A DNA stretch of 64,000 bases from Halopiger aswanensis (lineage in GTDB: Archaea > Halobacteriota > Halobacteria > Halobacteriales > Natrialbaceae). Positions 22,245 through 46,300 of the stretch are shown here, one piece after another (the stretch's first letter is position 1; each line of letters starts with the position of its first letter). The notes below the pieces were generated by a model. It did no database searches. It was not told where the DNA came from and saw nothing but the letters and a program-made list of their open reading frames with translations. A program made the position numbers and the translations under genes. The DNA is taken from positions 1,054,001 to 1,118,000 of the forward strand of contig NZ_RAPO01000001.1 of the NCBI RefSeq assembly GCF_003610195.1, in the 5' to 3' direction.

Positions 22245-22246
22245 CG

Positions 22247-23605
22247 TTATTCCTGGTAGCCGAGGTCTCGCAGTCGTTCTTTAACGGTGTCGTCCATGTG
22301 AACGTCGCCGATGTCGGTCTCGGTCGCGGCGATCTCCTGACGGTGGTCGTCGATGACGCTTCGCGCGTGCTCGAGGATTTCCGGTTCGGTGTCGACGACG
22401 TTCTCCCGTTCATCGGGATCAGCCGTCAGATCGTACAGTTCCTCGCCGTCCTCGGTTCGGATGTACTTCCACTCCCGATCTCGGTACGAGAAGCGTCGCT
22501 CGCCGGAGTTCGTGTTCTCCCAGTCGCCGATGATATGCTCTCGAGACCAGCCGTCACCGGCGAACAGGGACTGCAGGCTCTCCCCGTAGAAGTTCGGCGG
22601 CCGCTCGAGTCCGGCGCTCTCGACGAGCGTCGGCGCTACGTCGAGAAGGCCGACGAGGTCGTCGTGCTCCCCGCCGTCGCCGGAGCCGTCGTCGTACAGC
22701 AGCGGGACGTGGAGCACCTCGTCGTAGAAGGTCGCGTAGTGGCTGAACTGCCCGTGATCGAGGAACTCCTCGCCGTGGTCGGCCGTGACGAGCGCGGTGA
22801 CGTCGCCCCACTGCTCGCGCACGGTATCGATCAACCGGCTGATTTGCTCGTCGGTAAAGCGAATCTCCGCGTCGTAGAGGTCGACGATATCCTCGAGTTC
22901 TGACTCGGTGACGTCGCCGGGCGACTCGATCATCTTGCGGCGGAGCTGGATCGCCCGCCGCTCGCCGATCGGCTCGTCGCGGAAGGCGCGCTGGTGGCGC
23001 TCCGGCGGGACGTACGGGTGGTGGACGTCCATGTAGTGTACCCACAGGAATCGAGGCCCGTCGTCGGCGACGGACTCAGCCCACTCGAGCGCGTGATCGG
23101 TAATCTCGTCGGCGCTGACATACGCCGAACCGATGTTCACGCCGGCGGTTTCCTCGGCAGTCTCGAACGCTCGAGCGAGCGTCTGGTAGACCAGGCCGTC
23201 CGAGTCGAGTTGGTCCTTGACGAACTGCCGGAGTCGTGCAGTCGCCGACGGATCCGTTTTCGAGTCGTAGAATTCGTCGAAGCCGCGGTCGTAATCGAAA
23301 TCGGCGCTGAGATACAGGTTTGAATGAAAGCCAGCCGTTCGATAGCCGGCCTCGTCGAAGACTTCCGAAATCAGCGTTCGCTCGGGCGAGATCCGCTCGT
23401 AGCCGCCGTACATGAGAGCATACGACGATGTGAGGATCGACGGGAAGGACGGCCGCGTGCTGCAGGCGTGTGCGAACGCGTTCGTACAGGTGTGGCTGCG
23501 GTCGGCGAGGGTGTCTAAGTTCGGCGTCGTCTCTCGTTCGTAACCGTGCCATCCGACGTGATCTGCGCGCAACGAGTCGACGGTGACGAGAACAACGTCC
23601 TCCAT
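22247..23605 (-). CDS. Sulfatase-family hydrolase
   Basis: A 452-residue protein of the sulfatase/alkaline phosphatase superfamily. Metal-binding Asp10 lies in LVTVDSLRADH, the nucleophile region is ACSTRPSFPSIL (about residues 46-57), MDVHHPYVPP is in the middle, and VTADHGEEFLDHG (about residue 278) carries the last metal ligands. GEELYDLTADPDERENV is the usual C-terminal sulfatase segment, and the tail RLRDLGYQE matches the family here. ACSTRPSFPS does not match CxPxR exactly, so formylglycine maturation is uncertain and a Ser/Thr nucleophile (phosphodiester or phosphate transfer) is possible. Confidence 0.85.
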   Translation of the reverse strand: MEDVVLVTVDSLRADHVGWHGYERETTPNLDTLADRSHTCTNAFAHACSTRPSFPSILTSSYALMYGGYERISPERTLISEVFDEAGYRTAGFHSNLYLSADFDYDRGFDEFYDSKTDPSATARLRQFVKDQLDSDGLVYQTLARAFETAEETAGVNIGSAYVSADEITDHALEWAESVADDGPRFLWVHYMDVHHPYVPPERHQRAFRDEPIGERRAIQLRRKMIESPGDVTESELEDIVDLYDAEIRFTDEQISRLIDTVREQWGDVTALVTADHGEEFLDHGQFSHYATFYDEVLHVPLLYDDGSGDGGEHDDLVGLLDVAPTLVESAGLERPPNFYGESLQSLFAGDGWSREHIIGDWENTNSGERRFSYRDREWKYIRTEDGEELYDLTADPDERENVVDTEPEILEHARSVIDDHRQEIAATETDIGDVHMDDTVKERLRDLGYQE

Positions 23606-23626
23606 GTCGACGATTCCACCGTCGGG

Positions 23627-24652
23627 TTATTTCAGATTTGTGATGGTATTCTTATACGTCTCGGCAATTTCGGCCCAGTCGAACTCGCGCGCGAACGATT
23701 GAAGCCCTGTAGTCGTCGATTGTGATGACCCAGTCGAACCGGTTTGCTCAGTGCCAGCACGTTCAATCGCGCGAGCAATACTGTCCGGCGTCGGATCGCA
23801 AAACTCGACGAGTCCGTCGAACCGTTCTTCCGCGCGGCCCCGAACCTGGACCGTCGGCAATCCTGCCGCACCGTACTCAAGGACTTTCAGCGTGTGCGGG
23901 TCATCGACGAGACAGACGCCGACGTCGGCGGCGTGGAGGTAGCCCGGGATAACCTCGTGCGGAACCGTCCCTGGATAGACGATATTGTCGTGACTTGCCG
24001 CCGCTCGCTCGACCTGCTCCGACAGCGATCCCGTCCCGAGGACGAGCAGCGTCCACGATTCGTCGAGTCGCGTCGCCGCAGCGAGCAGGTCGCGGACGTG
24101 GTAGATCGGCTCGAGGCCGCCGACGTAGATTGCGACGTTCTCCGCTACTGTCCCCTCGAGCGCCGATTCGGCTCGTTCGACGATGTCAGGATCGGGATTC
24201 GCGAACCGATCGAAGTCGACGCCGAGGGCGGTCTTCGTCGCGGTACCGAACCGATTGACGCGATTTGCTTCCTCGTCGTAGACGTAGAGAACGCGATCGG
24301 CGACGCGAAAGGCCACATTCTCGAGTTGACGGACGATCGTCGCGAGCCAGCGCGGATTGTTCTCTTCGAATTGCCTGATTGGATCGATATGATCGACGAT
24401 CAACGGCGTGCCAGTCGCGAGTTTAATCGCTGTACCGGCGATGGCCCCCGCCCGCGTCGTTCCAATGATGACATCGTACTGACCGGCATCGCGAAGCGAT
24501 TGCAGGACCGTCTTCGACGTGGTGCCCCTGAGCGTTACGTCGACGCCGCTCTCCTCGAGATGGGTGGCGATACGCTGACGGCCGACGCTGATATCTTCCG
24601 GTTTATCGGGCGTCAGCCAGAGGACAGTCGTCGAAGTGGGTAGCGTAGTCAT
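23627..24652 (-). CDS. Glycosyltransferase family 4-like
   Basis: A 341-residue GT-B type protein. The N-terminal domain starts TTVLWLTPDKPEDISVGRQRI, and the C-terminal donor domain contains AIYVGGLEPIYHVRDLLAAA, LLVLGTGSLSEQVERAA and KVLEYGAAGLPTV (EX7E-like) near residue 265. It overlaps the AglG paralogue upstream by 4 bp (ATGA) and is followed 21 bp later by a sulfatase-like gene, so it is in the middle of an operon of at least four genes. Specificity unknown. Confidence 0.82.
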   Translation of the reverse strand: MTTLPTSTTVLWLTPDKPEDISVGRQRIATHLEESGVDVTLRGTTSKTVLQSLRDAGQYDVIIGTTRAGAIAGTAIKLATGTPLIVDHIDPIRQFEENNPRWLATIVRQLENVAFRVADRVLYVYDEEANRVNRFGTATKTALGVDFDRFANPDPDIVERAESALEGTVAENVAIYVGGLEPIYHVRDLLAAATRLDESWTLLVLGTGSLSEQVERAAASHDNIVYPGTVPHEVIPGYLHAADVGVCLVDDPHTLKVLEYGAAGLPTVQVRGRAEERFDGLVEFCDPTPDSIARAIERAGTEQTGSTGSSQSTTTGLQSFAREFDWAEIAETYKNTITNLK

Positions 24653-25569
24653 CGGTATCGAACGACTCCGTAGAGGTACCCCAGCCCCACGACGGCGGTG
24701 AAGACGAACAGTGCGAGGAATCGAGTCGCTCGTCCGATACTCGGGTCGCTCGTGAGTCCCCGTATCCTTTCAGGTGCGAATTTCAAAAGGAGTTTGCTGA
24801 GGAACTCGCTCTCCTCGTCGCTCGAGTCCGGAACGAGCGTTTCCATCGCTCGTTTCGAATAACCCTGCCAGAACGCGCGCTCGAGGAGCCACGTCGGATC
24901 GGTTCGGTATTCGAAGACCTTGTGTTCGACTTCGGCCTCAGGAACGTACCAGACGGCGCGCCCGTACTTCCGTTGCATCCGCGCGCACAGTTCCGTCTCT
25001 CCTCCCTGCAGGTTTTTGTCGCCCTTTCGACCGCCGATATCCGTATCGAAGCCCTCGAGATTCAGAAACACGTCGCGCCGGAAAGAGATGTTCGAGCCGA
25101 ACGTGTTTCGGACTTCCTCCGGTCCGTCGGCGAACCCCCGGTGGGTCACGCCGACGAGCCAGTAGAATTCCTCGGGGAGAAAGTCGGGCCGATCAGCGGT
25201 CCATCGTGGTGTCATTTTCCCGCCCGCTGCGATCGCGTTCTTCTCATCGTACGCGTCGACGAGTGACTCGATCCACCGTTCGTCTGCGACAGCATCGTCG
25301 TCGAGAAAGGCGACGACATCGCCGCTGGCGAGTTCGGCGCCGCGATTTCGGCTCGCCAACAGTCCCTTGTTCTCGTCATTACAGTGAACGACGATGTCGT
25401 CTCGATTGCCGAAATCCTCGAGCGCGCGTCCGTACACGGCGTCAGTGCCGTCGACGACAACGACGAGTTCCACGCTGTCGTACGTCTGCTCGAGAACGCT
25501 CATCGCGGCCTCGCGGAAGTCATCGTATGCGTCAATATCGTAAGTACAGAGTACGACTGAAACGTCCAT
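24649..25569 (-). CDS. AglG-like family 2 glycosyltransferase (second paralogue)
   Basis: A 306-residue paralogue of the AglG-like enzyme at 9271. It has the same MDVSVVLCTYDIDAYDDF opening, CNDENKG loop, DDD at residues 90-92, FLPEEFYWLVGVTHRGFAD and EVRNTFGSNISFRRDVFL, and a hydrophobic C-terminal anchor. The two are alike throughout but not identical, as expected of an older duplication; they may add uronic-acid residues at different positions. First gene of the operon running to 21297 and divergent from aglB (135 bp between starts). Confidence 0.8.
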   Translation of the reverse strand: MDVSVVLCTYDIDAYDDFREAAMSVLEQTYDSVELVVVVDGTDAVYGRALEDFGNRDDIVVHCNDENKGLLASRNRGAELASGDVVAFLDDDAVADERWIESLVDAYDEKNAIAAGGKMTPRWTADRPDFLPEEFYWLVGVTHRGFADGPEEVRNTFGSNISFRRDVFLNLEGFDTDIGGRKGDKNLQGGETELCARMQRKYGRAVWYVPEAEVEHKVFEYRTDPTWLLERAFWQGYSKRAMETLVPDSSDEESEFLSKLLLKFAPERIRGLTSDPSIGRATRFLALFVFTAVVGLGYLYGVVRYR

Positions 25570-25674: not shown

Positions 25675-25682
25675 TTATTTTT
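25675..25682 (+). promoter_or_regulatory. TATA box of aglB
   Basis: TTATTTTT is centred about 26 nt before the ATG at 25705. The spacing fits a leaderless aglB transcript and favours that ATG over the TTG at 25681, which lies within the TATA box itself. Confidence 0.55.
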
Positions 25683-25704
25683 GACTTGGGTCTGGTGCAA
25701 CCTA

Positions 25705-28653
25705 ATGAGCACGGATACCGAACACGTCGAGGAGGAGTCCGACACGTCCTCCGCCCTCGCGACGTGGCGAAACTGGTATCACTTCCCTATTATCGGGGCC
25801 GTGATGCTGTTTATGTTCTGGCTGCGGACCCAGTCGTTCGACCGGTTCACGACTGGCGACGGAACGCCTGCGCTGGCGGGAATCGACTCGTGGTATCACT
25901 GGCGAACGATCCAGTGGACCGCGGAGAACTACCCGCACACAATGCCGTACGAGATCTGGACCGGCTTCCCGGAGGGGAACTACGTCGGCCAGTTCGGCAC
26001 ACTCTTCGATCAACTGATCGTCACGGCGGCGATGATCGTCGGGCTCGGCGATCCATCCACCCAAACGCTGTACACGGTTTCGCTGCTTTCGATCCCGATC
26101 ATGGCAGCGCTCGTTGCGATTCCCGTCTTCTACATGGGGCGGCGCCTCGGCGGGACGCTAGGCGGGATCATCTCGATCATCATTCTCGCGCTTTCCCGCG
26201 GACAGTTCCTCTCACGATCGACCGTCGGCCAGCTCGACCACCACATCGGCGAGGCACTGTTTATGGCGATTGCGGTCCTCGCGATGATGGTCGCACTCAC
26301 CGTCGGCGAGCGGGAGAAACCGATCTACGAACTGGTCGCGGACAAGGACTGGCAACCGCTTCGTACGCCTGCCCTCTATAGCGTCCTCGCTGGAATTGCG
26401 CTCTCGCTTTACATCTGGGTGTGGCCGTCTGGCGTCGTACTCGTCGGTATCTTCGGCGCCTTCTTCGCCGTGCAGCTCTGTCTCGATTATCTCCGCGGAG
26501 TCTCTCCAGACCACATCGCATTCGTCGGTGCGGTGAGTCTCGGCGTCACTACGCTCGTGACCGCGATACTGATCGAACGACCCGGATTCGGGACCACTAA
26601 TTTCAGCTACCTCCAGCCCCTTCTTGCCCTCTCAGTAGCAGTTGGCTGTCTTTTCATGGCCTGGCTCGCTCGAGAGTGGAACAATCGAGATATCGATCGT
26701 CGGTACTATCCCGCTGCAATCGTCGGAATCGGCGCCGGTGCGCTGGCACTGATGTGGCTCGTACTCCCTGAACTCTACAGTACGCTCGTCGGAAACCTCA
26801 CAGGGCGACTCCTTCCCTTCGGTGCATCTGAATCCGCACTAACCGTTCAGGAAGTCCAACCGCCGGATGACTACTTCAACCACGTCTTCTCCGAGTCCGG
26901 AAGCGCGTTCTTCACGATGCTCATTGGACTCGTCTTTCTCGCGATCCGGCCACTCTTCGGCCGTAAATTCCGTGCTGAGCACACGCTCGTTATCGTCTGG
27001 TCGCTGTTCCTGATCAGTATGGCGGCGGCACAAGTTCGTTTCTCGTACTACCTTGTCCTCGCAATCGCCGTCGTTAACGCCGCGTTCGTCGCGGAGGTTG
27101 TACGGCTCTTCGATCTCGATCTCACCAGACGACTCGAGTCGGTCAGGCAACTCGAGACCTATCAAGTTCTCACTGTCGCGATTGTTGTCCTCTTGCTGTT
27201 CGCGCCGTTGCTGCCGCCGATTGCGACGGCAACTGCGTGGGGGAGTGCTGAATCCGTTGGGCCGAACGGCGACGCGATGACGTGGGAGGAAGCGAACCAC
27301 TGGCTAGAAGGAAACACGCCCGAGCCGGGTGACTGGGCGGACGCAGACAGAACTGACGAACTCGAGTACTACGGCACCTACGAGTATCCGGACAATGGTA
27401 ACTACGACTATCCCGAGGGGGCGTACGGCGTAATCTCGTGGTGGGACTACGGCCATCTGATCACAACGCAGGGTGAACGAATACCGCACTCAAATCCGTT
27501 CCAGCAACACGCGTCATCGTCATCGGCCTTCCTGACGGCTACGTCCGAAGAACGAGCTGAGTTGGTGCTCGATGCGATCGCTGCAGGTGGATCACCGACC
27601 GACGAGTCCAACGAACAACTCGAGCAAATTGCCGCCGATACCAACGACAGCGGCGAAGACGTCCGGTACGTGATGATCGATGACCAGATGGCCGGCGGGA
27701 AGTTCAGTGCGATGACCGCCTTCACCGGACCCGGCTACGGTCACTACTACGACACGAAGGAATACCAGCTCGACGGTGACCAACAACAGGTTGCTGGCCC
27801 GAACGAGAACTACTACAATACGACGACGGCGTCGCTGTACCTTCAGGACGCAAACGAGATGGAGCACTATCGGCTGGTCCACGAGAACGACGACTACGCG
27901 TTCGTCGGCGGAATGCGGGTTGGAAACCGAGGCGGTCCCCACTACTCGCTCCAACTCTCACGATACAACCGGCTCGTCAACGACCAGTTCGAAGTCGAAA
28001 CAAGTTGGGGCAACGAAACGGCTGCGTTGCAATCGGACCTCGCGGACGCACGCGAGAACAACGAAATCTACCAGTCGCTCGGTATCCCGATGTGGGATGC
28101 ACACCTCGAGTCGACTGTCAAAACCTTCGAGCGTGTCGAAGGCGCGACGATTACAGGAACTGTTGACGACGAGTCTATCGTCGAGAACGCAACTGTGACC
28201 GCAGCGGTCGACCTCGAGACAAACACCGGCCGTACGTTCACCTATGAGCAGGAAGCTACGGTTAACGAGGATGGGAGCTTCGAACTGACGGTGCCGTACG
28301 CGACAAACGACGAACTGAGCGTCGAGGACGGCTACACGAACAGTAGTGTCGAAGCGCTCAGCAACTACGTCGTCTCCGTCGAACGGCCTGGTTCGCAAGG
28401 TTTCGGCATCACTGAGTATCAGGGCCAGACTGAAGTTAGTGAATCAGCAGTCGTCGACGGAGAGACGGTTTCGGTTGATCTCGAGGAGGTCGAGTTCGAG
28501 AATCAGAGCGATATGAATAACGAGAGCGAGAGTAACGCGACTGACGAAAACAGTTCCGACGATAACAGTGCGGAAAGTGACTCGACCGGCAACAACGACA
28601 CGGCCGGCGCAATTAGCTCAGCTGATTCCATGATCGCTGAATCCGCGAACTAG
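25705..28653 (+). CDS. aglB: Oligosaccharyltransferase AglB (STT3 family)
   Basis: A 982-residue membrane enzyme that transfers lipid-linked glycans to Asn in N-X-S/T sequons on the outer face. The metal-binding first motif is in GIDSWYHWR (Asp at about residue 62), many transmembrane helices follow over about residues 25-510, and the STT3 catalytic motif WWDYGH is at about residue 579, then an extracytoplasmic domain. The C-terminal tail (from about residue 935) is Asn/Ser/Asp/Glu-rich and has potential sequons of its own. Length is close to Haloferax AglB. It is immediately upstream of the S-layer glycoprotein gene and divergent from an aglG paralogue. Confidence 0.95.
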   Translation: MSTDTEHVEEESDTSSALATWRNWYHFPIIGAVMLFMFWLRTQSFDRFTTGDGTPALAGIDSWYHWRTIQWTAENYPHTMPYEIWTGFPEGNYVGQFGTLFDQLIVTAAMIVGLGDPSTQTLYTVSLLSIPIMAALVAIPVFYMGRRLGGTLGGIISIIILALSRGQFLSRSTVGQLDHHIGEALFMAIAVLAMMVALTVGEREKPIYELVADKDWQPLRTPALYSVLAGIALSLYIWVWPSGVVLVGIFGAFFAVQLCLDYLRGVSPDHIAFVGAVSLGVTTLVTAILIERPGFGTTNFSYLQPLLALSVAVGCLFMAWLAREWNNRDIDRRYYPAAIVGIGAGALALMWLVLPELYSTLVGNLTGRLLPFGASESALTVQEVQPPDDYFNHVFSESGSAFFTMLIGLVFLAIRPLFGRKFRAEHTLVIVWSLFLISMAAAQVRFSYYLVLAIAVVNAAFVAEVVRLFDLDLTRRLESVRQLETYQVLTVAIVVLLLFAPLLPPIATATAWGSAESVGPNGDAMTWEEANHWLEGNTPEPGDWADADRTDELEYYGTYEYPDNGNYDYPEGAYGVISWWDYGHLITTQGERIPHSNPFQQHASSSSAFLTATSEERAELVLDAIAAGGSPTDESNEQLEQIAADTNDSGEDVRYVMIDDQMAGGKFSAMTAFTGPGYGHYYDTKEYQLDGDQQQVAGPNENYYNTTTASLYLQDANEMEHYRLVHENDDYAFVGGMRVGNRGGPHYSLQLSRYNRLVNDQFEVETSWGNETAALQSDLADARENNEIYQSLGIPMWDAHLESTVKTFERVEGATITGTVDDESIVENATVTAAVDLETNTGRTFTYEQEATVNEDGSFELTVPYATNDELSVEDGYTNSSVEALSNYVVSVERPGSQGFGITEYQGQTEVSESAVVDGETVSVDLEEVEFENQSDMNNESESNATDENSSDDNSAESDSTGNNDTAGAISSADSMIAESAN

Positions 28654-32042: not shown

Positions 32043-34460
32043 ATGACTGACGACGACTCGAGTGCCGTTGCGGACGCGACCACCGCGTTTCTCGAGGATC
32101 ATGAAGACGGGGAACGGGTGCTCGAAGCGGTTCTCGAGGTCGACGCGGACGCCGAAACGTGGACTTTTGACGACATCGTTCTGGATTCCGGAACCTTTGG
32201 TGAGCTAGTGTCTCGCGGGATCGTAGAGAAACACGATGGAGAATATCGCGTTGCGGATGAGCCGGTCGTCCGAGCAGTTCTTGCAGGTGACGCAATCGTC
32301 GCCGAATCAACCGGTACACAAGACGAGCGTTCGTTTTCGTTCAAATATGATATTGACGTACGGGCGCTGTCAGCGCTACTTGGCGCACTGACGGTCGTCG
32401 CCGCCGCGCGGATGCTCGTCTACAACCGCGTCTTCCAGCGCGGATACGTTGTCTCGCCCGGGAACGATCCGTATTTCTTCCGCTACTGGATGGAACGGCT
32501 GTTGGCGGAGTCGTCCGGGCCGACGGATTACGGTGTTCTAGTCGATACTGCGTGGACGCGTCCCTCCTCCCATGCGACTAACTGGTTTCTCGCCGAGTTA
32601 CTCGGTGGTGATCAGTGGGCGGCGGATATCGTCGCTGCTTGGCTCCCGATCCTCGCCTCGGTTGCACTGGGTGCGTTGATCTACAAGCTCACCGTTCTGC
32701 TCACTCGAGACGTTCGCGTCGGGATCGCATCGGTGCTACTCTTCGCTGTCACGCCCACACACGTAGTGTACACGGAGCTGGGATTCATCGATCACCAGCT
32801 ACACCAGTACTTCTGGCTCGGCGTGACGCTACTCACGCTCGGATGGCTCGCGGTCGATCTTCAGCGTCGTCTCGAGAGGGGCGGTGTCGTTTCGGACCAC
32901 CTTCGATCGCCCGCGACGTGGGTCGTCGCCTGTATCTTCGGAATTTCCGTCGCTGTCGGAACGCACGCGTGGGGCGGCTCGCCGCTGCTCTTGCTCCCGC
33001 TGGCGGGCTACATCGCCCTGCGAGCGGCGATGGATGCTCGAGAAGATGTGCCATCGCTACACGCGAACCTTCCAGTATTGGGTGGACTTACGTTAGGTGC
33101 GGTGATTTCGCTCGCCTTGAATGTCCGGTGGGGATGGCACGAAACCTTCGTCTCGGCGACCCCTGCGATGGTGCTGGTCGGGGGGACGCTCGTATTCACG
33201 CTTGGCGAACTGTGGCGGCGGCAGGAAGTACATCTCGGCGGGTTAGTAATCGTTGAGGGAGTCGTCGCTGCTGTCGGGCTGTTTGCCTTCCGGCGGTTGC
33301 GTCCGGAAGACTGGGTAGCGGCCCAAGAACGTATCGACGATCTGTTCTTCCGGGAAGGTGCGAGCGAAACGATGTCGCTGTTCGCGACGGAGTACGCGGT
33401 GTTCTTCGGTCCGCTGTATCAGCTCGGCGTCGGATTCTATCTCGGACTGGCCGTGTTGGGCTGGGTAGCTTGGCTTGTCTACCGACGGTACGAGCCAGGG
33501 TGGTTACTCGTCGGGACCTACACCGGCTACCTACTGTTGCTGGCGGGGATTCAGGTTCGCTTCGCCAGTCAACTCGCGATTCCGCTCGCGATCCTTGGCG
33601 GACTCGGGTTCGTGTACGTGTTGTCCGCGGTCGATCTCGCGCGTCGCCCCGTCCCGTTCCGCGGCGACTCGCCGTCAATGGTAGATCGCACAGGAGCTCC
33701 ATCGCTGGCTTCCGACGGCGGCCGATCAGAGCCGTCAATCGCGCTTCCCGATGGGCGGGCGGCCGTGTACGTTGTTGGCATCTTCCTGCTGGTATTCGGG
33801 GTGAGTCTGATCTATGTACCTGGACTGACTTCGGACGTCGCGTACGACGACTCACAGGTCGCCGCGCTCGAGGCGATCGACGACCACGCCGAAGCGGTCG
33901 AGCGAGAGTACCCCGAAAACTACGTGCTGAGCGAGTGGGGCGACAACCGAATGTACAACCACTTCGTGAACGGCGAGTCGCGAGGGTACGGCTACGCGCA
34001 GAGCAATTACGTCGATTTCGTCACCGGTTCTGATCCCGACGGCTGGTACGATCAGTTCGACGGCCGCGTCGGCTACGTCGTCCTCACTGACGTCGAGCGG
34101 GATGTGCCGGCAGACAGTACGCAAGCGCAGTTGTTCGAGCGGTACGGTTCGGCCGGAAACGAAACTGACGGCGTCGCCCACTACCAGGCTATCTTCGTCG
34201 ACGACGACGTTGCCGCGTTCGCAGTCGTCCCCGGTGCGACGCTCGACGTCTCCGGCGAGGCGGGTTCATCCGTGCCCCTCGAGACAACGGTATCGGTGTC
34301 CGATGAGTCGATCACCTACGAACGCGACGTGGCTATCGGAGACGACGGCCAGGGGACGGTAACGGTCCCGTACGCAGGCGAGTACGTGGTTGGGAATCAG
34401 ACGGAGACCGTTTCCGAGGGCGACGTTCTGAACGGACAAGCGGTTACGGTCGGTGACTGA
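32043..34460 (+). CDS. STT3-like membrane protein without the WWDYG motif
   Basis: An 805-residue protein with an N-terminal soluble acidic segment of about 100 residues, then about 12 hydrophobic helices (residues 110-590) and a C-terminal extracytoplasmic domain. The first luminal motif of STT3 enzymes is recognisable in GNDPYFFRYW (Asp at about residue 142), and GFIDHQLHQYFW lies near residue 243, like the DHH region of AglB. Where AglB has WWDYGH this protein has SEWGDNR (about residue 631), so the canonical catalytic Trp-Trp-Asp is not there. It may be a diverged oligosaccharyltransferase or another GT-C enzyme. It stands alone between uppP remnant and intact uppP. Confidence 0.65.
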   Translation: MTDDDSSAVADATTAFLEDHEDGERVLEAVLEVDADAETWTFDDIVLDSGTFGELVSRGIVEKHDGEYRVADEPVVRAVLAGDAIVAESTGTQDERSFSFKYDIDVRALSALLGALTVVAAARMLVYNRVFQRGYVVSPGNDPYFFRYWMERLLAESSGPTDYGVLVDTAWTRPSSHATNWFLAELLGGDQWAADIVAAWLPILASVALGALIYKLTVLLTRDVRVGIASVLLFAVTPTHVVYTELGFIDHQLHQYFWLGVTLLTLGWLAVDLQRRLERGGVVSDHLRSPATWVVACIFGISVAVGTHAWGGSPLLLLPLAGYIALRAAMDAREDVPSLHANLPVLGGLTLGAVISLALNVRWGWHETFVSATPAMVLVGGTLVFTLGELWRRQEVHLGGLVIVEGVVAAVGLFAFRRLRPEDWVAAQERIDDLFFREGASETMSLFATEYAVFFGPLYQLGVGFYLGLAVLGWVAWLVYRRYEPGWLLVGTYTGYLLLLAGIQVRFASQLAIPLAILGGLGFVYVLSAVDLARRPVPFRGDSPSMVDRTGAPSLASDGGRSEPSIALPDGRAAVYVVGIFLLVFGVSLIYVPGLTSDVAYDDSQVAALEAIDDHAEAVEREYPENYVLSEWGDNRMYNHFVNGESRGYGYAQSNYVDFVTGSDPDGWYDQFDGRVGYVVLTDVERDVPADSTQAQLFERYGSAGNETDGVAHYQAIFVDDDVAAFAVVPGATLDVSGEAGSSVPLETTVSVSDESITYERDVAIGDDGQGTVTVPYAGEYVVGNQTETVSEGDVLNGQAVTVGD

Positions 34461-34688: not shown

Positions 34689-35582
34689 GTGAACGCGAGT
34701 ATGATTGACGCTGTGCTCGAGAATACGATGGTAGCCCCTCCTGTGAGTACATCCGCCAACTGGGAATTCATCGTCGCAGTTCTCGCTGGCATTGTCCAAG
34801 GTATCGTCGAGTGGCTGCCGGTCTCCTCGCAGGGGAACCTTTCGCTGTTCCTGACGCTCGCCGGCACGGATCCGGAGCACGCGCTGCAACTGGCGCTGTT
34901 TCTACAGGTTGGGACGACACTCTCCTCGGCGCTGTACTATCGTGATGATATTCGAGAGAGTTTCGCGGCCGTTCCGGAATGGCGACCGTCGACGGCATTT
35001 ACCGGTGCGAACGCGGTGACGACGTTCGTCGTCGTCGCCTGTATCGCGACGGGACTGGTCGGCATCCCGCTCTACGTGTTGGCTGCAGACTTCGTGAGCG
35101 AACTGAGCGGCGGGCTGTTTATCGCAGCGATCGGCGCGTTGCTCGTCGCGACCGGGGTGTTACAGTTGGTCACCGAGTCTGTTGCGCTCGAGGATCGCGA
35201 CGAGCCGACACTCCGTGACGCCGTAATCGTGGGCGCCTTCCAGGGGCTGTCGATCCTCCCTGGGATTTCACGATCCGGCGTGACGACGAGTGCTCTGCTC
35301 TTTCGCTCGTATCGTGTGCCGTCGGCGTTTCGGCTGTCGTTCCTGCTTTCGATTCCTGCAGGTTTGGGCGCCGGCGTGTTGACCGTTGTGACCGAGGGTG
35401 GGATTCCTGGTGTGAGCCTAAGTGCTGCCACAGTGGCGATCGTGACCAGTACTGTTGTTGGATACCTGACTATTGGGTTGCTGATGCGCGTCGTCGAACG
35501 GATCCCATTCTGGATCGTCTGTTTCAGCTTGGGTGGGTTGGCGATCATCGGCGGCGGAGGGGTTGCGGTGTTTACGGTGTAG
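34689..35582 (+). CDS. uppP: Undecaprenyl-diphosphatase family protein (UppP/BacA)
   Basis: A 297-residue membrane phosphatase with about eight hydrophobic helices. The catalytic glutamates lie in GIVQGIVEWLPVSSQGNL (about residue 40), and the second active-site motif PGISRSGVT is at about residue 192. It removes a phosphate from polyprenyl diphosphate released after glycan transfer, so the carrier can be used again; in haloarchaea the substrate is likely a dolichyl diphosphate. GTG at 34689 is used; ATG at 34701 would be an alternative start. It is flanked by N- and C-terminal pieces of other uppP copies. Confidence 0.88.
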   Translation: MNASMIDAVLENTMVAPPVSTSANWEFIVAVLAGIVQGIVEWLPVSSQGNLSLFLTLAGTDPEHALQLALFLQVGTTLSSALYYRDDIRESFAAVPEWRPSTAFTGANAVTTFVVVACIATGLVGIPLYVLAADFVSELSGGLFIAAIGALLVATGVLQLVTESVALEDRDEPTLRDAVIVGAFQGLSILPGISRSGVTTSALLFRSYRVPSAFRLSFLLSIPAGLGAGVLTVVTEGGIPGVSLSAATVAIVTSTVVGYLTIGLLMRVVERIPFWIVCFSLGGLAIIGGGGVAVFTV

Positions 35583-35846: not shown

Positions 35847-35936
35847 ACCACGTCCATTCTATATTTTGAAAGTAACGTTAGCGCATCTACTCTCAGTAAA
35901 GTAGGGAATTTTTATTGGCCCTCTGTTGGTCTTCAG

Positions 35937-36853
35937 ATGATGCAGGACAAACGGATTCTGGTAACCGGCGGTGCCGGATTTATTGGCCCAAACCTCGCAA
36001 ACGAACTCCGAGTGACAACGGGATCGTCGTTGACGACGGGTACCTGGAGACGCCGGCAAATCTCGATGTAGCGGTCGAGTTTCGGGATGCGAGCGTCCTC
36101 GAGGAGGGCCTGCCGACGGATGTTGACGTCGTGTTCCACTTGGCAGCATTGTCGTCGTACGCGATGTACGAGGATGATTCCTGTAAAGGTGCTCCAGTGA
36201 ATGTGGAGGGATTCGTCAACGTCGTCGATCAGGCCAGGAAAGACGGTTGTGACACAGTGGTGTACACGTCGACATCGTCGATCTACGGCAGCCGGACAGA
36301 GCCGTCATCCGAAGATATGAATGTGACGGTAAACACGGGCTATGAGGCCTCGAAGATGGCCCGCGAACGGTACGCGGAATACTTCTCGAACCACTACGAC
36401 ATAAGCGCTGCGAGAATGTGGTTTTTCACAGTCTATCAGGGCTACGGCGGTGCCGAGGAACACAAGGGAGAGTACGCGAACGTGATCGCACAGTTTGCCG
36501 ACGATATTGCAAACGGCGATTCCCCCATCCTGTACGGAGACGGCGAGAAGACGCGTGACTTCACTCACGTCGACGACGTCGTCCCCGGGCTCGTTCTAGC
36601 TGCTGAACACGAACTCGACGGGGTCTACAACCTGGGCACCGGGGATGCCTACGACTTCAACACCGTCGTCGAACTGCTCAACGAGGAACTCGGTACTGAC
36701 GTCGAACCCGAGTACACTGAGAACCCGATTCCCGATGACGTGTACATCCATGACACGTGCGCGGATCCGACGAAGATACGTGAAGCAACTGGTTGAGAAC
36801 CCGAAATCGACTTCAAGGAAGGGATTCGACGGGTTTGTGAACAGTATAAGTAA
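35937..36853 (+). pseudogene. NAD-dependent epimerase gene with frameshift and stop codon
   Basis: The start (ATG ATG CAG at 35937) gives [20 protein letters not shown] in one frame; from about 36018 the sequence continues in another frame as DNGIVVDDGYLETPANLDVA and on through LAALSSY, the catalytic GYEASKMARERYAEYF, YGDGEKTRDFTHVDDVV and VYNLGTGDAYDFN. Near the C-terminus, TGA at 36794-36796 stands where the family has a conserved Trp, after which the usual end (EPEIDFKEGIRRVCEQYK) continues in frame to TAA at 36853. So there are at least two inactivating changes. Otherwise the protein would be a UDP-sugar epimerase of about 300 residues. Confidence 0.85.
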
Positions 36854-37143: not shown

Positions 37144-37788
37144 TTAGATTTCGGTATCCGCGTTCCGGCTTCGTACTTGCGAGTCGTCAGAAGCTGGTTC
37201 TGAATCGTCAACTGATCTCGATTCATCCGTCCCTTCCGCAATCTCCGTCTCGGTCGGGGGCTCAGGCGGTTCGAATGCAGCAACAGGTAGCTCCCATGCT
37301 CTGGTTTCGGTCAGGTCCTCGAGCGTCCGTTCCGAGCGCAGTCCGAGGACTGCCAGTCCGGCGAGGACGGCGTGACCGATGACCCATCCAGTCCCGATTT
37401 GTCCGAGGACGATCGAAACGAGTCCCGAGAAGACGACTCCCCCGAGGATCGCAGTGCCGAGTACTCGGAGCGGACGTGCGCGGAACTGATCCTCGACGCG
37501 GTGTGAGAATTCGACCGCTCTCGAGGAGGCTGTTGCCCGTGCGCATTGTTCGAAGATTCGATCGAGCAGGCGGATGAACGGCCCAACGGTGTAGGTCTCG
37601 CGGAGATCGATGACGATTACCTCCGGATCGGGTTCCGCCGTAAGCCATCGGTACACCCACGAGTGGCGCACGTACCGGCCGAGGGTCCGTACCGTGCTGG
37701 CGAGCCGGGAGCGTTCGACACCCGTTCGAAGCCGTTGTTCGACGGTCTCGATCGTCTGCTGTGTCGAGTCAGCGTTCGAATCGGTCAT
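37144..37788 (-). CDS. Membrane protein of unknown function
   Basis: A 214-residue protein. Residues 1-105 are charged and probably cytoplasmic (RYVRHSWVYRWLTAEPDPEV). Two hydrophobic helices follow (LGTAILGGVVFSGLVSIVLG and VIGHAVLAGLAVLGL, about residues 110-150). The C-terminal 50 residues are acidic and disordered. I do not recognise the family. It starts 2 bp after the stop of the DUF4330 gene, so the two are an operon; such pairs occur next to sugar-transferase genes in haloarchaea (recollection, not verified). Confidence 0.65.
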   Translation of the reverse strand: MTDSNADSTQQTIETVEQRLRTGVERSRLASTVRTLGRYVRHSWVYRWLTAEPDPEVIVIDLRETYTVGPFIRLLDRIFEQCARATASSRAVEFSHRVEDQFRARPLRVLGTAILGGVVFSGLVSIVLGQIGTGWVIGHAVLAGLAVLGLRSERTLEDLTETRAWELPVAAFEPPEPPTETEIAEGTDESRSVDDSEPASDDSQVRSRNADTEI

Positions 37789-37790
37789 AA

Positions 37791-38915
37791 TCAGTCAACG
37801 ATCCACGCGCGTTGCTCGACGGTTGTGACGCCGAAATCGAGGTAGACGGTATCGCCGTTCCGGAGGGATTCACCCTTGAACTGCTGTCCAAGATCCGTCT
37901 CGCGGGTCTCCAGGTCGACAGTGAGGGTCACGTCGTATTTGGTTGGGTGCTGGCGCTCGTGCAGATTGCCGTCCTCGGTTTCGACGATGACGGAAGCCGG
38001 TTCGCGGTCGACGTTCGTAATCGTCGCCCACGTGTCGCCGCCCGCCGTCTCGGTCAGTCCGGGTTCGAACTGGGAGGCTTCCCGTTCCCCGAGTTGGTCG
38101 AGATCGATTTCGACGGTAGTCGTCGACGGCTCACCGGGTTCGTCCGTCGTTCCGAGCTCGCGTATCGTCGGCCGGAGATCGTACTCGGCCGTCGAGAACG
38201 CGATCGTCGATTCGGGTTCGACGATCGCGGAGCCGTACCGCGGGTCGTCCTCGGTTGCGAGCGTCTCGAGCGTTGCGCCAGCGACGACGCGATACTGGCC
38301 GTCGCTGAGTGGGTAGACGGACGCAGTTTCGAGGGTTGCGGTCGTTTCGTTGCCGAGCTGAGCTTCGTCCCCGGCCTCGATCGCTTCGGCTGTCTCCCGG
38401 TCGACCGTCCGATCGAACAGGACCTCGGTTTCGTTGGTCTGCAGTTCGGCGGTCGTGTTCTCGACGGTCTCGATGGTGCCGGTTACGTCGTACTCGTCGG
38501 TTTGAATCGAGATATTGTGATCGGCGGCGACCTCGTTGCCGCCGAACGCGAACGTGCCGTTCTCGTACTGCGTTCCTTTGACCTCGGTGCGGACGGTTAC
38601 GTCGGCGGTTTCGTTTCCGGCCGGGACCGCGTACACGTCGGTAACCGCGAGGCGTTCGTCTTCGACGTCGCCGGTCATCTCGTCTCCCGTGGCGACGGCT
38701 TCGGCGTTCGAGAGCGACTGCGTGCCGAGATCGATCGTCGCGTAGCGGGTTTCGGTCGGCGGTCCGTCGTCGCCGTCCGTAGTGTCGTCTCCTGGACCGA
38801 GAACGCCGACGACGGCGATACCGGCGACGCCGACCGCGAGAACGAGTAAAACCACAAGTGCGTCGATGACGTTGACGACGCCGAAGAGATTCCCCTTCTC
38901 GTCAATCAGTTCCAT
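37791..38915 (-). CDS. DUF4330 family protein
   Basis: A 374-residue protein. The N-terminus MELIDEKGNLFGVVNVIDAL with one transmembrane helix (VVLLVLAVGVAGIAVVGVL, about residues 22-42) is the usual DUF4330 signature. A long extracytoplasmic region follows with repeated beta-strand segments and several N-X-S/T sequons. Function unknown; many members lie beside polysaccharide genes, as here, upstream of the WbaP-type sugar transferase on the opposite strand. Probably a membrane-anchored exported protein connected with cell-surface polysaccharide (inference). Confidence 0.75.
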   Translation of the reverse strand: MELIDEKGNLFGVVNVIDALVVLLVLAVGVAGIAVVGVLGPGDDTTDGDDGPPTETRYATIDLGTQSLSNAEAVATGDEMTGDVEDERLAVTDVYAVPAGNETADVTVRTEVKGTQYENGTFAFGGNEVAADHNISIQTDEYDVTGTIETVENTTAELQTNETEVLFDRTVDRETAEAIEAGDEAQLGNETTATLETASVYPLSDGQYRVVAGATLETLATEDDPRYGSAIVEPESTIAFSTAEYDLRPTIRELGTTDEPGEPSTTTVEIDLDQLGEREASQFEPGLTETAGGDTWATITNVDREPASVIVETEDGNLHERQHPTKYDVTLTVDLETRETDLGQQFKGESLRNGDTVYLDFGVTTVEQRAWIVD

Positions 38916-39186: not shown

Positions 39187-40671
39187 ATGCTTACTGGGTG
39201 GCGGTTTCGTGTCGTGAGCCTCCTCGGCGTGATCGGGTTGACCCTCGCCGCCGTGGTCGCCGCCAACCACGAACTCTCCCAGACGCTGTTTACTACGTAC
39301 GTGCCGCTTTTCAATCGGCTCGAGGCTACCGTACTCACCGGCGAGTCGTTCTACCTGGCCGTCCTGCTGTCCGTCGTGACGGTGACGGGGAGTCTCCTGC
39401 CGCTGTACAAACCCCGCCCGCGGCGGATTCTGGATACCGTGGTACTGGTCCAAAAACGCGTGGTCGTGGCAGGATTCGCGCTCGCTACGCTCGGCTACTT
39501 CAAGTGGTCGCACCGACTGCCTCGTGCGACGCTCGTGATGATCATCGGGTTGCTCGGAATCGTCCTTCCCGCGTGGTTCGTCTGGATTCGACGACGACCG
39601 CACGGGGCCGACGGGCGGACGCTGCTGGTCGGCGACGATCTGGCGCAGATCGAACGCATCGCACCGGCCGTGGACGCGCCCATCCTCGGGTATCTCTGTC
39701 CCTCGAGCGTGGACTACTACGAGTTCGACGAGGGTGCTATCGGTGAGGGCGGCGGGACGAGAGTTACTGCCGACGGTGGAGTGGCGTTGCAGCACACCGG
39801 TGAGGATCAGGAACTCGAACAAGCCCTCGACGAATTGCCTCGGATCGGCGGGCTGTCGCGGTTGGAGGATACGCTCGTCGAGTACGACGTCGACACCGTC
39901 GTCCTGGCGTTCCGGCAGGCCGATCGCGCGGAGTTTTTCGGCGCATTGGACGCCTGTTATGAACACGGCGTGGACGCGAAGGTCCACCGGGAGTACGCCG
40001 ACAGCGTGCTCGTAGCTGCGGGAGACGTCGGGAAACTGGTAGATGTGGATCTCGAGCCCTGGGATCCAATTGATCACCTGTTCAAACGGGCGTTCGACGT
40101 TTTGTTCGCGGCGACCGCATTGGTTGCGCTTGCACCAGTGGTCGCTGTCATCTCGACGGCGATTAAACTTGAGGACGGCGGATCGATACTTTACCAGCAG
40201 GATCGGACGGCCGTGTTTGGCGATTCGTTTCCGGTATATAAGTTCCGCAGTATGATCGAAAACGCCGAAGCCGAAACGGGGGCGAAGATCAGCGAGGAAG
40301 ACGCCGGCGAAGCCGACCCACGTGTTACACGCGTCGGGCACGTACTACGAAAGACGCATCTTGACGAGATTCCACAACTCTGGTCGATCCTCGTCGGCGA
40401 TATGAGCGTCGTCGGCCCTCGGCCGGAACGGCCGGAGCTCGATACAGAAATCCAAGACGATGGGATCGACTGGGAAAAACGCTGGTTCGTCAAGCCTGGC
40501 CTGACTGGGCTTGCACAAATCAACGACGCCACCGGCCATGAACCTGCAAAGAAGCTTCGGTACGATCTCGAGTACGTCCGACGACAGTCACTTGGGTACG
40601 ATCTAATAATCGTGGCTCGACAGATCTGGAAAGTGTTATCCGACGTCAGGGAGTTCGCTTCTGACGAATGA
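39187..40671 (+). CDS. Polyprenyl sugar-phosphate transferase (WbaP-type)
   Basis: A 494-residue initiating glycosyltransferase. The N-terminal part (residues 1-135) has four to five transmembrane helices, then a CoA-binding/NAD-like Rossmann region ([18 protein letters not shown]). The C-terminal bacterial sugar transferase domain (from about residue 295) shows [61 protein letters not shown] and [10 protein letters not shown]. It attaches sugar-1-phosphate to a polyprenyl phosphate and so starts a lipid-linked glycan. First gene of a three-gene plus-strand operon with an epimerase and a GT4. Confidence 0.9.
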
Positions 40672-41615
40672 GTTCACAGGACGGTACGGCTTCTCTTTCA
40701 GGTAAGCGGATTCTCATCACCGGCGGTGCCGGATTCATCGGGAGCAACATCGCAGAAGAACTCGTTGCCGACAATGATATCCGTATCCTCGATAACTTCT
40801 CCAGTGGCTCTCGATCGAATGTTCCGGACGAGGCGACGGTGATTGACGGCGATATCCGAACCGATGACGATCTCGATCGAGCGACGGAGGACGTCGACGT
40901 TATCTTCCATCAGGCGGCCCTGATCAGCGTCGAAAAGTCGATGCGCGCACCCGAGCTCACGCACGAGATCAACGTCACTGCGACCGTAAAGCTGCTCGAA
41001 CGAGCACGTGAGGAATCCGCTCGGCTGGTGTTTGCCTCGAGCGCTGCGGTGTACGGACAGCCTGAGTCCGTCCCCATTTCTGAGAACGCGTCAACGCATC
41101 CAACATCGCCGTACGGTGTCTCGAAACTCGCCGCTGAGGAATACATCCAGCTATACGTCGATCAGTACAATCTGGACGCGGTCATCCTACGATACTTCAA
41201 CGTATACGGTCCGGGACAGATCGATAGCGACTACAGTGCTGTCATCGGTATCTTCGTCGAGCAGGCGCTCAACGGAGAGGAGATCACGGTCGAAGGGGAT
41301 GGGTCCCAGACTCGAGACTTCGTCCACGTTCGGGATATCGTCCAGGCGAATCTACTCGCGGCGAGTTCCGATGTCACCGGCGTGTACAATGTTGGAACCG
41401 GAGAGAGCGTCTCGATTCTCGAGTTAGCCGAAACCGTTCGCGAAGTCGCGAGTTCGGGATCGGACATCGTCCATGCCGCTGCGCGGGACGGAGACATCGA
41501 TCAAAGTCGTGCCGATATCTCTAAGATCCAGTCAGCCCTCGACTTTCAACCCACTGTTACGCTTCGAAACGGACTCGAGACAATCGTTCCATCAGCGGAT
41601 TCTAAATCGGAATAA
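40668..41615 (+). CDS. NAD-dependent UDP-sugar 4-epimerase (GalE-like)
   Basis: A 315-residue extended SDR with [14 protein letters not shown] at about residues 18-31, a catalytic Tyr-Lys pair in [13 protein letters not shown] (about residue 150), [15 protein letters not shown] and [14 protein letters not shown]. It overlaps the sugar transferase by 4 bp (ATGA), so the translation is coupled. Probably supplies the sugar that the transferase puts on the carrier, for example UDP-GalNAc or UDP-galactose. It is related to the broken epimerase at 35937 but intact. Confidence 0.88.
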
Positions 41616-41765
41616 CGGGACTCCGGTTTAGTGAAGGACGATACTTTTAGGGTGGACCGAATACGAGTCTCCGTTCTCTGTCTTGTAGGGGCGGGGCGCT
41701 ATCGACGAGGAAAAGCCCGTCAAAACGACAAATCATTACACCACCGCACAGTAACGGTGACTCGA

Positions 41766-42857
41766 ATGCGAATTCTTCGGGTTGCACAGACGATCTATCC
41801 CGACGTGAAAGGCGGCGGTGCCTATCACGTCCACGCGATGAGTCGCGACCAAGCTGCGATGGGTCACGACGTGACCGTGCTAACGGTACGGCACGATCCT
41901 GAGCTGCCTCACATTGAGGAGCGCGATGGGTATACAGTGGTTCGGTACGATCCTACCGTGAATCTACTCGGTAATGATATTAGTCTCGGAGTTGCGCAGT
42001 ATCTGCGGGACGCGGCAAATTTCGACGTGATACACGCCCACTCGCATCTCTACTTCTCGACGAACCTCGCGGCGCTGAAACGGTTCTGCGAGGATATCCC
42101 GCTGGCGATTACGAACCACGGTCTATACAGTCAGACTGCTCCCGAATGGGTCTTCGATCTCTATCTGCGCACGATGGGGCGGTGGACGTTCAACCAAGCC
42201 GACGTGGTGTTTTGCTATACAGAGACCGATAAGGAGCGGGTTCGGGGGTTCGGGGTCTCGAGTCAGATTGAGGTCGTTCCTAATGGAATCGATACTGAGC
42301 GCTTCATGCCCGAGGGCCCCGAGAGCGATTTAGTAGAGGCAGACGGGCCTATAGTGTTGTTTGTTGGACGGTTGGTTGAAGGAAAACAGCCATCTATCGC
42401 ACTCGAGGGGTTTGCATCGGTTCGAAAAGAGTATCCAAACGCAGAAATGTACCTCTGTGGAGAAGGGCCACTTCAAGAGACTCTTGAATCTCAAGCCGCC
42501 GATTTAGGAATCGAGGATTCCGTTACTTTTCTGGGACAGGTTCCTTATGATGAGATGCCAAACGTGTTCCGGAGTGTGGATTTATTCGTTCTTTCGAGCC
42601 GAGCAGAAGGTGTTCCACGGACGATCATGGAGGCGCTCTCGACAGGTATTCCCGTGGTTTGTTCGGAACTACCGCAAGTCAAGTCAGCCTTCGGTAATGA
42701 GATTGCGTACGCTCCCGTTGATAACGTCGATGTATTCGGAGACAGAATGCGCGAGACGTTAATGAAGGAGTCAAACGCAGAACTCGATTCGGAATTTAGC
42801 TGGGAACGAACAGTTAAACAGACGACAGCAAGTCTCAATCGTCTAAATCGGAAGTGA
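41766..42857 (+). CDS. Glycosyltransferase family 4
   Basis: A 363-residue GT-B protein starting at ATG 41766. The upstream in-frame extension to 41631 is basic and not family-like. MRILRVAQTIYPDVKGGGAYHV is the usual acceptor-domain start, IVLFVGRLVEGKQPSIALEG and LCGEGPLQETLESQA are the donor-side strands, and SRAEGVPRTIMEALSTGIPVV contains the EX7E motif (about residue 280). Elongates the glycan begun by the preceding sugar transferase. It is convergent with the asparagine synthase gene (4 bp apart). Confidence 0.85.
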   Translation: MRILRVAQTIYPDVKGGGAYHVHAMSRDQAAMGHDVTVLTVRHDPELPHIEERDGYTVVRYDPTVNLLGNDISLGVAQYLRDAANFDVIHAHSHLYFSTNLAALKRFCEDIPLAITNHGLYSQTAPEWVFDLYLRTMGRWTFNQADVVFCYTETDKERVRGFGVSSQIEVVPNGIDTERFMPEGPESDLVEADGPIVLFVGRLVEGKQPSIALEGFASVRKEYPNAEMYLCGEGPLQETLESQAADLGIEDSVTFLGQVPYDEMPNVFRSVDLFVLSSRAEGVPRTIMEALSTGIPVVCSELPQVKSAFGNEIAYAPVDNVDVFGDRMRETLMKESNAELDSEFSWERTVKQTTASLNRLNRK

Positions 42858-44775: not shown

Positions 44776-44800
44776 TAGTAATCTATACAGCCAATTCCAT

Positions 44801-44810
44801 CCATATAAGT
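44801..44810 (-). promoter_or_regulatory. TATA box of asnB
   Basis: On the minus strand ACTTATATGG lies about 28-30 nt before the ATG at 44775, consistent with a leaderless transcript. Confidence 0.5.
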
Positions 44811-44910
44811 CACGTTATTGGGTATAGTGACAGGTTTAGATGATGAAGTTAAAGCCTCAATCATGAGCAGGCATATCTCTCTAATAATTTGATCAAATCT
44901 GCCTTGAACC

Positions 44911-46269: not shown

Positions 46270-46290
46270 CACAGGAGTTAAGCAAAAGTA

Positions 46291-46300
46291 ATTTTAAAAG
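46291..46300 (-). promoter_or_regulatory. TATA box of the sulfatase-like gene
   Basis: CTTTTAAAAT on the minus strand lies about 27 nt before ATG 46269, the standard archaeal distance for a leaderless start. Confidence 0.5.

What the first reader, a model, noticed from the sequence alone, without database searches (positions are those of the whole stretch)
32043..34460. STT3-like protein without WWDYG beside aglB
Seen: the protein keeps an Asp-containing first motif (GNDPYFF) and an STT3-like helix layout, but the catalytic WWDYG position holds SEWGDNR. Known: STT3/AglB enzymes need WWDYG, and the transferase for the second N-glycan of Haloferax volcanii is AglB-independent and unidentified. 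Inference: this could be a diverged oligosaccharyltransferase for a second glycan, or a GT-C enzyme with another acceptor.
Basis: partly seen in the sequence, partly recalled or inferred. Interest (0 to 1): 0.75.

Follow-up and report, generated by a model that had tools for sequence, protein, structure and literature searches.

The report
WWDYG-less second oligosaccharyltransferase-like enzyme in haloarchaea
About half of salt-loving archaea carry, beside their normal protein-glycosylating enzyme AglB, an ancient second copy that lacks the part that recognises the usual N-X-S/T target, travels with genes for diphosphate-linked sugar chains, and in Halobacterium salinarum lies beside the S-layer gene, making it the best candidate for a protein-glycosylating enzyme sought for decades.

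Summary
In detail: an 805-aa ORF at 32043-34460 keeps the AglB fold but lacks WWDYG. It belongs to a clean family (67 members aligned, WWDYG in none) found in about 208 of 392 Halobacteriales genomes. It is always distinct from AglB, which nearly every genome also has. The first catalytic Asp, the EL5 Glu and the Arg at the lipid-phosphate position are invariant. WWDYG is replaced by a conserved xWGxNRxYN motif. AlphaFold models match A. fulgidus AglB best. The gene tracks the primer enzyme of diphosphate-linked glycans (PF02397): 150 of 156 genomes with it, 41 of 137 without; usually within 30 kb. So it most likely transfers dolichyl-diphosphate-linked glycans to acceptors other than the normal sequon. 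A better link emerged. Halobacterium salinarum has the gene beside its S-layer gene, GlmS and the primer. There a bacitracin-sensitive, DolPP-borne glycan goes to S-layer Asn-2 even without the sequon Ser, and its transferase is unknown. Acceptor and activity remain inference. The window's own clade has changed metal-site residues, so activity is less certain there. Novelty: new variant of STT3/AglB.

The parts
32043..34460 (+). AglB-like transferase without WWDYG (805 aa), the subject
32043..32294 (+). N-terminal cytosolic winged-helix-like domain (about residues 1-84), shared with haloarchaeal EMC3/TMCO1-like proteins
   Evidence: A1 profile hits on the N-termini of ~300-aa proteins, E 6e-10 to 1e-7; those proteins are Pfam EMC3_TMCO1, E 1e-44
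32460..32468 (+). first DXD-type motif GND (residues 140-142); D142 aligns with AfAglB Asp47
   Evidence: 67/67 Asp; HMM alignment to 3waj; Asp47 role in PMC8342417
32790..32798 (+). second DXD-type motif, here DHQ (residues 250-252); AfAglB has D161-H-H163
   Evidence: H251 67/67; position 252 H24/R22/Q17/N3/G1; haloarchaeal AglB N27/H3/S1
33366..33368 (+). Glu442, equivalent of the TIXE glutamate (AfAglB Glu360)
   Evidence: 67/67; aligned to TIAE
33558..33560 (+). Arg506 of the QVRF motif, position of the OST arginine near the lipid phosphate
   Evidence: 67/67 in the family, 31/31 in AglB
33930..33950 (+). SEWGDNR (residues 630-636), the place where AglB has SWWDYG
   Evidence: the segment-only profile alignment agrees but is not significant
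34233..34385 (+). C-terminal AglB_L1-like peripheral domain
   Evidence: Pfam AglB_L1 E 3e-4; hhalign E 7e-13 to AglB
25681..28653 (+). canonical AglB (WWDYG present)
   Evidence: TIGR04154 882 bits
29062..31569 (+). PGF-CTERM surface glycoprotein between AglB and the subject; possible acceptor, not shown
34689..35582 (+). BacA/UppP-type polyprenyl diphosphate phosphatase directly downstream; recurs near the family in 7 of 36 loci
37791..38915 (-). DUF4330 protein, recurrent neighbour (9 of 36 loci)
39187..40671 (+). WcaJ/EPS-type polyprenyl phosphate glycosylphosphotransferase (PF02397), primer of diphosphate-linked glycans; recurs in 16 of 36 loci
40668..42857 (+). nucleotide-sugar epimerase and GT4 glycosyltransferase, glycan assembly genes

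Best explanation
It is a haloarchaea-specific second oligosaccharyltransferase-type enzyme. It takes glycans carried on dolichyl diphosphate, started by a PF02397 phosphoglycosyltransferase, and hands them outside the membrane to surface glycoproteins. The catalytic Asp and Glu and the lipid-phosphate Arg are those of AglB. The Ser/Thr pocket formed by WWDYG is replaced by a different conserved motif, so the acceptor is not the ordinary N-X-S/T sequon. In Halobacterium salinarum it is the best candidate for the unidentified transferase of the bacitracin-sensitive, DolPP-borne repeating-unit glycan on S-layer Asn-2. Shown here: fold, conserved residues, distribution, gene linkage. Inferred: catalysis, use of a diphosphate donor, identity of the acceptor.
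For: (1) Foldseek top hits are A. fulgidus AglB for both the window model (pLDDT 86, E 7e-20) and the Hbt. salinarum model (pLDDT 89, E 1e-21); the profile search hits only AfAglB convincingly (E 4e-22). (2) D142, H251, E442, R506 and F507 are 67/67, and dN/dS is 0.09. (3) WWDYG is absent in all 67; W1 and D are lost, W2 is kept and R/N residues are gained. WWDYG and DK/MI form the Ser/Thr pocket (PMC8342417). (4) PF02397 co-occurs: 150/156 genomes with the family against 41/137 without, Fisher p 4e-36. Within genera: Natrinema-like 11/11 vs 0/4, g33 10/10 vs 2/8, Halobacterium 3/4 vs 0/9. Linked within 10 kb in 53/86 and within 30 kb in 68/86. (5) BacA/UppP, which could recycle the diphosphate carrier, is next door in the window and near the family in 7/36 loci. 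(6) AglB is present in 286/293 genomes, so this is an extra pathway. (7) G096 is Hbt. salinarum (bacteriorhodopsin 260/260; halorhodopsin 272/274). Its locus runs csg - CARDB - ABC - FtsX - this gene - GlmS - two NTP transferases - PGT in 14 kb. (8) Literature: DolPP carrier, bacitracin sensitivity, Asn-2 still glycosylated when the sequon Ser is replaced, and only one OST gene recognised (PMC2952790); whether AglB does it is unclear (PMC6591318). (9) That genome's S-layer protein begins A-N2-A-D4, so Asn-2 is kept without a sequon.
Against: No activity has been shown for any member. In 43 of 67 members, the window's included, position 252 (AfAglB metal ligand His163) is not His and position 255 is Gln instead of acid, so the metal site differs, although haloarchaeal AglBs are themselves mostly Asn at 252. 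Only 3 of 4 Halobacterium species with the gene have Asn at mature position 2 of an S-layer protein, and the window's own surface glycoprotein does not. Only a few other loci have a recognisable PGF-CTERM protein within 10 kb. 41 genomes have PF02397 without the family. The Asn-2 experiments used laboratory strains; the gene was found here in an Hbt. salinarum genome whose S-layer sequence differs from the published Asn-Ala-Ser start, and NRC-1 and R1 were not searched directly. A polymerase or lipid-acceptor role is not excluded.
Confidence: 0.6

Rival explanations
1. It is an AglB-derived glycan ligase or polymerase whose acceptor is not a protein: it joins repeat units to each other or to a membrane lipid in the same PF02397-primed pathway, as Wzy or WaaL do in bacteria.
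For: Same gene linkage as the main explanation. Loss of WWDYG removes the peptide Ser/Thr pocket. The Halobacterium repeating-unit glycan is a polymer and so needs a polymerase. Many loci have no obvious glycoprotein nearby.
Against: It keeps the C-terminal globular and AglB_L1-like peripheral domains of peptide-using OSTs, unlike Wzy/WaaL; a WaaL structure appears only as an insignificant hit (E 0.12). The EL5 Glu, which in AfAglB also touches the acceptor Asn, is invariant. It lies in a conserved locus with the S-layer gene in two Halobacterium genomes.
Confidence: 0.2
2. It is a protein glycosyltransferase with a different acceptor atom or residue (O-linked Thr/Ser, or a C-mannosyltransferase-like reaction).
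For: DPY19 C-mannosyltransferase, which also has the STT3 fold and no WWDYG, is a significant structural hit (E 2e-6 and 7e-8). Halobacterium S-layer carries O-linked disaccharides on Thr (PMC2952790).
Against: Structural and sequence scores are much closer to AglB than to DPY19. The carboxylate arrangement is the amide-activating Asp/Glu pair of N-OSTs. Association with a diphosphate-linked primer does not fit Dol-P-Man enzymes.
Confidence: 0.12
3. It is a catalytically dead AglB paralogue acting as a partner or regulator of AglB or of the translocon.
For: WWDYG is lost and the metal-site residues are altered in 43/67 members, including the window protein. The N-terminal domain is shared with EMC3/TMCO1-like proteins.
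Against: First Asp, Glu442 and Arg506 are invariant and the second motif is intact DHH in 24 members. The gene tracks PF02397 rather than AglB, which is nearly universal.
Confidence: 0.08

Closest known systems
AglB, archaeal oligosaccharyltransferase (TIGR04154; A. fulgidus AglB-L structures 3wak, 5gmy, 7e9s)
   Same: Overall fold, GND first motif, DHx second motif, EL5 glutamate, QVRF arginine, C-terminal globular and AglB_L1-like domain.
   Different: No WWDYG; first W and D replaced with a four-residue insertion; extra N-terminal cytosolic domain; separate clade (support 100, total inter-clade branch about 3.8 changes per site); patchy distribution tied to PF02397.
DPY19 C-mannosyltransferase (7zlg, 7zlh, 7zli)
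   Same: STT3-like fold without WWDYG, with a changed peptide acceptor (fold match; acceptor facts are own knowledge).
   Different: Uses Dol-P-Man and Trp acceptors; eukaryotic; much weaker match than AglB.
Halobacterium salinarum DolPP-dependent glycosylation of S-layer Asn-2 (activity known, enzyme unknown)
   Same: Diphosphate donor pathway, S-layer gene beside this gene, sequon Ser not required (PMC2952790, PMC4476749, PMC6591318).
   Different: No gene has been assigned; the link to this family is inference from gene order, distribution and motif loss.
Haloferax volcanii Agl15-pathway transferase (unidentified)
   Same: Also an AglB-independent second N-glycan (PMC8241124).
   Different: Haloferax genomes lack this family and the PF02397 primer, so this is another enzyme.

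Membership tests
AglB/STT3 oligosaccharyltransferase | GT-C transmembrane fold plus C-terminal globular domain as in AglB | tested here: met
   Foldseek best hits AfAglB; AglB_L1-like domain
AglB/STT3 oligosaccharyltransferase | First DXD-type motif (GND) Asp | tested here: met
   67/67; aligned to AfAglB GGND
AglB/STT3 oligosaccharyltransferase | Second DXD-type motif (D-H-H in AfAglB) | tested here: inconclusive
   DHH in 24/67; DHQ in the window protein, EHR in 22; haloarchaeal AglB is mostly DHN
AglB/STT3 oligosaccharyltransferase | EL5 glutamate of TIXE/SVSE | tested here: met
   Glu 67/67; the preceding T and I are not conserved
AglB/STT3 oligosaccharyltransferase | Arg contacting the lipid-linked phosphate | tested here: met
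   R506 67/67 and AglB 31/31
AglB/STT3 oligosaccharyltransferase | WWDYG Ser/Thr pocket motif | tested here: not met
   0/67; replaced by xWGxNRxYN
AglB/STT3 oligosaccharyltransferase | DK or MI motif | tested here: inconclusive
   No match in the C-terminal region could be aligned with confidence
AglB (TIGR04154) | Score over curated cut-off 450 bits | tested here: not met
   89.6 bits
AglB/STT3 oligosaccharyltransferase | Transfer of lipid-linked glycan to Asn | not testable with these tools
   needs biochemistry or glycoproteomics
Haloferax Agl15-pathway transferase | Present in Haloferax | tested here: not met
   0 of 12 Haloferax genomes
Hbt. salinarum Asn-2 (DolPP) transferase | Present in Hbt. 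salinarum | tested here: met
   G096; strains NRC-1 and R1 not searched directly
Hbt. salinarum Asn-2 (DolPP) transferase | Belongs to a diphosphate-linked pathway | tested here: met
   PF02397 co-occurrence and linkage; genetic evidence only
Hbt. salinarum Asn-2 (DolPP) transferase | Glycosylates S-layer Asn-2 | not testable with these tools
   S-layer N-termini with Asn-2 in 3 of 4 Halobacterium species with the gene and none of 9 without, small sample

The most novel reading that the evidence does not exclude
This family is the long-missing second N-oligosaccharyltransferase of haloarchaea: the only archaeal OST dedicated to dolichyl-diphosphate donors, glycosylating Asn without the N-X-S/T sequon. 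It explains why S-layer Asn-2 of Halobacterium salinarum tolerates loss of Ser-4.
Probability: 0.35. Interest if true: 0.92.

Novelty: new variant of a known kind. Interest (0 to 1): 0.82.

Why it matters
[quoted passage not shown] Its DolPP-borne Asn-2 glycan and that site's tolerance of a broken sequon have stood unexplained since the 1980s-1990s because only one OST gene was recognised. This family supplies a concrete gene to delete. If active, it shows how an OST works without WWDYG and offers an enzyme that may glycosylate Asn outside N-X-S/T.

Tried and rejected
Transporter reading: rejected by fold and profile (the only transporter-like hit was a weak CraA HMM match). Recently decayed AglB copy: rejected by dN/dS 0.09, a separate clade and a conserved replacement motif, although broken copies exist in a few genomes. 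Haloferax Agl15 transferase: rejected by absence from the genus. A segment-only profile alignment of the WWDYG region was not significant (E 0.19), so the register rests on the joint alignment and order along the chain. Coordinates of the AlphaFold models were not available, so no atomic superposition of the active site was made. Asn at mature S-layer position 2 as a general rule: not supported outside Halobacterium (the window's surface protein lacks it). The type-strain comparison paper (10.1002/mbo3.974) was not held. No paper describing the family was found in the held library; subscription literature was not searchable.

Full report
OBSERVATION. The ORF at 32043-34460 (+) is real, starts with ATG and encodes 805 aa. 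The canonical AglB is at 25681-28653 (TIGR04154, 882 bits), with a PGF-CTERM surface glycoprotein between the two. The subject scores 89.6 bits with TIGR04154 (cut-off 450) and is below threshold in Pfam STT3 and AglB_L1. RefSeq names relatives on plasmids 'STT3 domain-containing protein', 'hypothetical protein' or, for two of them, 'LamG-like jellyroll fold domain-containing protein'.

WHAT IT IS. Searches found relatives in Natrinema, Natronorubrum, Halopiger, Halohasta, Halolamina and Halovenus and in many unnamed haloarchaeal genomes. With a 40-member profile the genomes fall into two sets: strong hits (E below about 1e-80, most below 1e-200) or only AglB-like background. By my hand count 208 of 392 Halobacteriales genomes have the gene. 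In a phylum-wide sample, strong hits were confined to the order; the only other hit was 3e-26. AglB itself is in 286 of 293, so the second gene adds to AglB and does not replace it. A tree of the membrane region separates 67 family members from 31 AglBs with full support (quick method, no outgroup).

ANATOMY. AlphaFold models of the window protein (pLDDT 86) and the Hbt. salinarum member (pLDDT 89) both match A. fulgidus AglB best, then eukaryotic STT3, PglB, DPY19 and ArnT. The HMM alignment to AfAglB places D142 on the GND aspartate, 250-252 on D161-H-H163 and E442 on the TIAE glutamate; the roles of these residues are in PMC8342417. Across 67 members D142, H251, E442, R506 and F507 never vary. 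WWDYG never occurs. In joint alignment S630-E-W-G sits on S-W-W-D, so the first Trp and the Asp are lost, the second Trp is kept and four residues are inserted, giving a new motif in which R636 and N639 never vary. The published structure assigns WWDYG and DK/MI to the pocket for the sequon Ser/Thr, so acceptor recognition must differ. Caution for the window's clade: position 252 is H in 24, R in 22, Q in 17, N in 3 and G in 1, and position 255 is D in exactly 24 and Q in 43. The non-His members, including the window protein, have a changed metal site, although most haloarchaeal AglBs have Asn at 252. Purifying selection is strong (dN/dS about 0.09).

SURROUNDINGS. In 36 neighbourhoods the commonest neighbours are a WcaJ/EPS-type primer (PF02397, 16 loci), nucleotide-sugar epimerases, GT4 enzymes, NTP transferases, DUF4330 proteins, GlmS, BacA/UppP phosphatase, UDP-sugar dehydrogenase and Wzx-type flippase. 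Genome-wide, PF02397 is present in 150 of 156 genomes with the family and 41 of 137 without (Fisher p 4e-36). The pattern holds inside genera: Natrinema-like 11/11 vs 0/4, g33 10/10 vs 2/8, Halobacterium 3/4 vs 0/9. The two genes lie within 10 kb in 53 and within 30 kb in 68 of 86 comparable cases (presence lists transcribed by hand; phylogenetic non-independence not corrected except by the within-genus counts). PF02397 enzymes make polyprenyl-diphosphate sugars and BacA dephosphorylates polyprenyl diphosphates (established knowledge). Hence the donor is most likely a diphosphate-linked glycan.

NAMING THE KEY GENOMES. G096 is Halobacterium salinarum: bacteriorhodopsin 260/260 identical to PDB 1m0k, halorhodopsin 272/274 to 2jaf. 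It has a family member with motifs GNDPYYYRYL, GFGDHHALD, SIVETKSLF and FSRWSRNRLYN. In 14 kb its locus holds the S-layer glycoprotein gene (homologue of Haloferax S-layer 7ptp, E 2e-149), a CARDB protein, ABC and FtsX genes, this gene, GlmS, two GlmU-like NTP transferases and the PF02397 gene. The order gene-GlmS-NTP transferase-PF02397 is conserved in G173 and G182. Genus g70 is Haloferax (PCNA 245/247 to 3hi8). All 12 of its sampled genomes lack the family and the 7 in the second sample lack PF02397.

MECHANISM. Most likely the enzyme transfers glycans from dolichyl diphosphate to a surface glycoprotein at sites that need no Ser/Thr at +2. This matches an old puzzle. In Hbt. salinarum one glycan goes only to S-layer Asn-2 from DolPP, is blocked by bacitracin, still goes there when Ser-4 is changed to Val, Leu or Asn, and only one OST gene was recognised (PMC2952790; PMC4476749). 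A later paper says it is unclear whether AglB handles it (PMC6591318). The G096 S-layer protein starts, after a 34-residue signal peptide, A-N-A-D: Asn-2 is kept and the sequon is naturally absent. Among 13 Halobacterium species, three of the four with the gene have A-N at the mature N-terminus of an S-layer protein (cleavage site inferred) and none of the nine without it does; this was noticed after the fact and the sample is small.

LIMITS. Nothing biochemical is shown. Acceptor atom, donor and even activity are inferred. The Asn-2 work was done on laboratory strains; the gene was found here in a strain with a different S-layer N-terminus, and NRC-1/R1 remain to be checked. A polymerase or lipid-acceptor role in the same pathway is the main rival.

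VERDICT. Observation confirmed. A second OST-like enzyme is well supported, the Haloferax link is refuted, and a stronger link to Halobacterium is proposed. New variant of a known kind.

Noticed in passing
window 32043-32294; L106:943-1821 (-); L108:1495-2367 (+): The N-terminal cytosolic domain of the family is shared with the N-terminus of haloarchaeal EMC3/TMCO1-like (Oxa1-superfamily) membrane proteins (A1 profile E 6e-10 to 1e-7; Pfam EMC3_TMCO1 E 1e-44). It may tether both to the ribosome or translocon.
   Followed up: partly
window 35915-36796: The epimerase ORF here is frameshifted: its Rossmann start [15 protein letters not shown] lies in another frame and runs into a stop.
   Followed up: partly
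window 20004-25569 and 42862-50955: Two flanking blocks of glycan genes contain similar pieces: PF00884 alkaline-phosphatase/sulfatase-fold proteins, GT2 and GT4 glycosyltransferases and an asparagine synthase, suggesting a duplicated or recombining glycan island.
   Followed up: no
L046 (G001), L165:7936-8551 (-) (G124), G167:C1:2937876-2940290: Broken or partial copies of the family gene occur in some genomes; in G124 fragments lie between two S-layer genes beside NTP-transferase fragments.
   Followed up: partly
67-member alignment, positions 252 and 255 of the window protein: His at 252 and Asp at 255 occur in equal numbers (24 each) and otherwise give way to Q/R/N/G and Gln, suggesting two subtypes with different metal sites.
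   Followed up: partly
window 37144-38915: A two-gene unit (a 214-aa protein without Pfam match and a DUF4330 protein) recurs beside the primer and the family in 7-9 of 36 loci; its role in glycan export or assembly is unknown.
   Followed up: no
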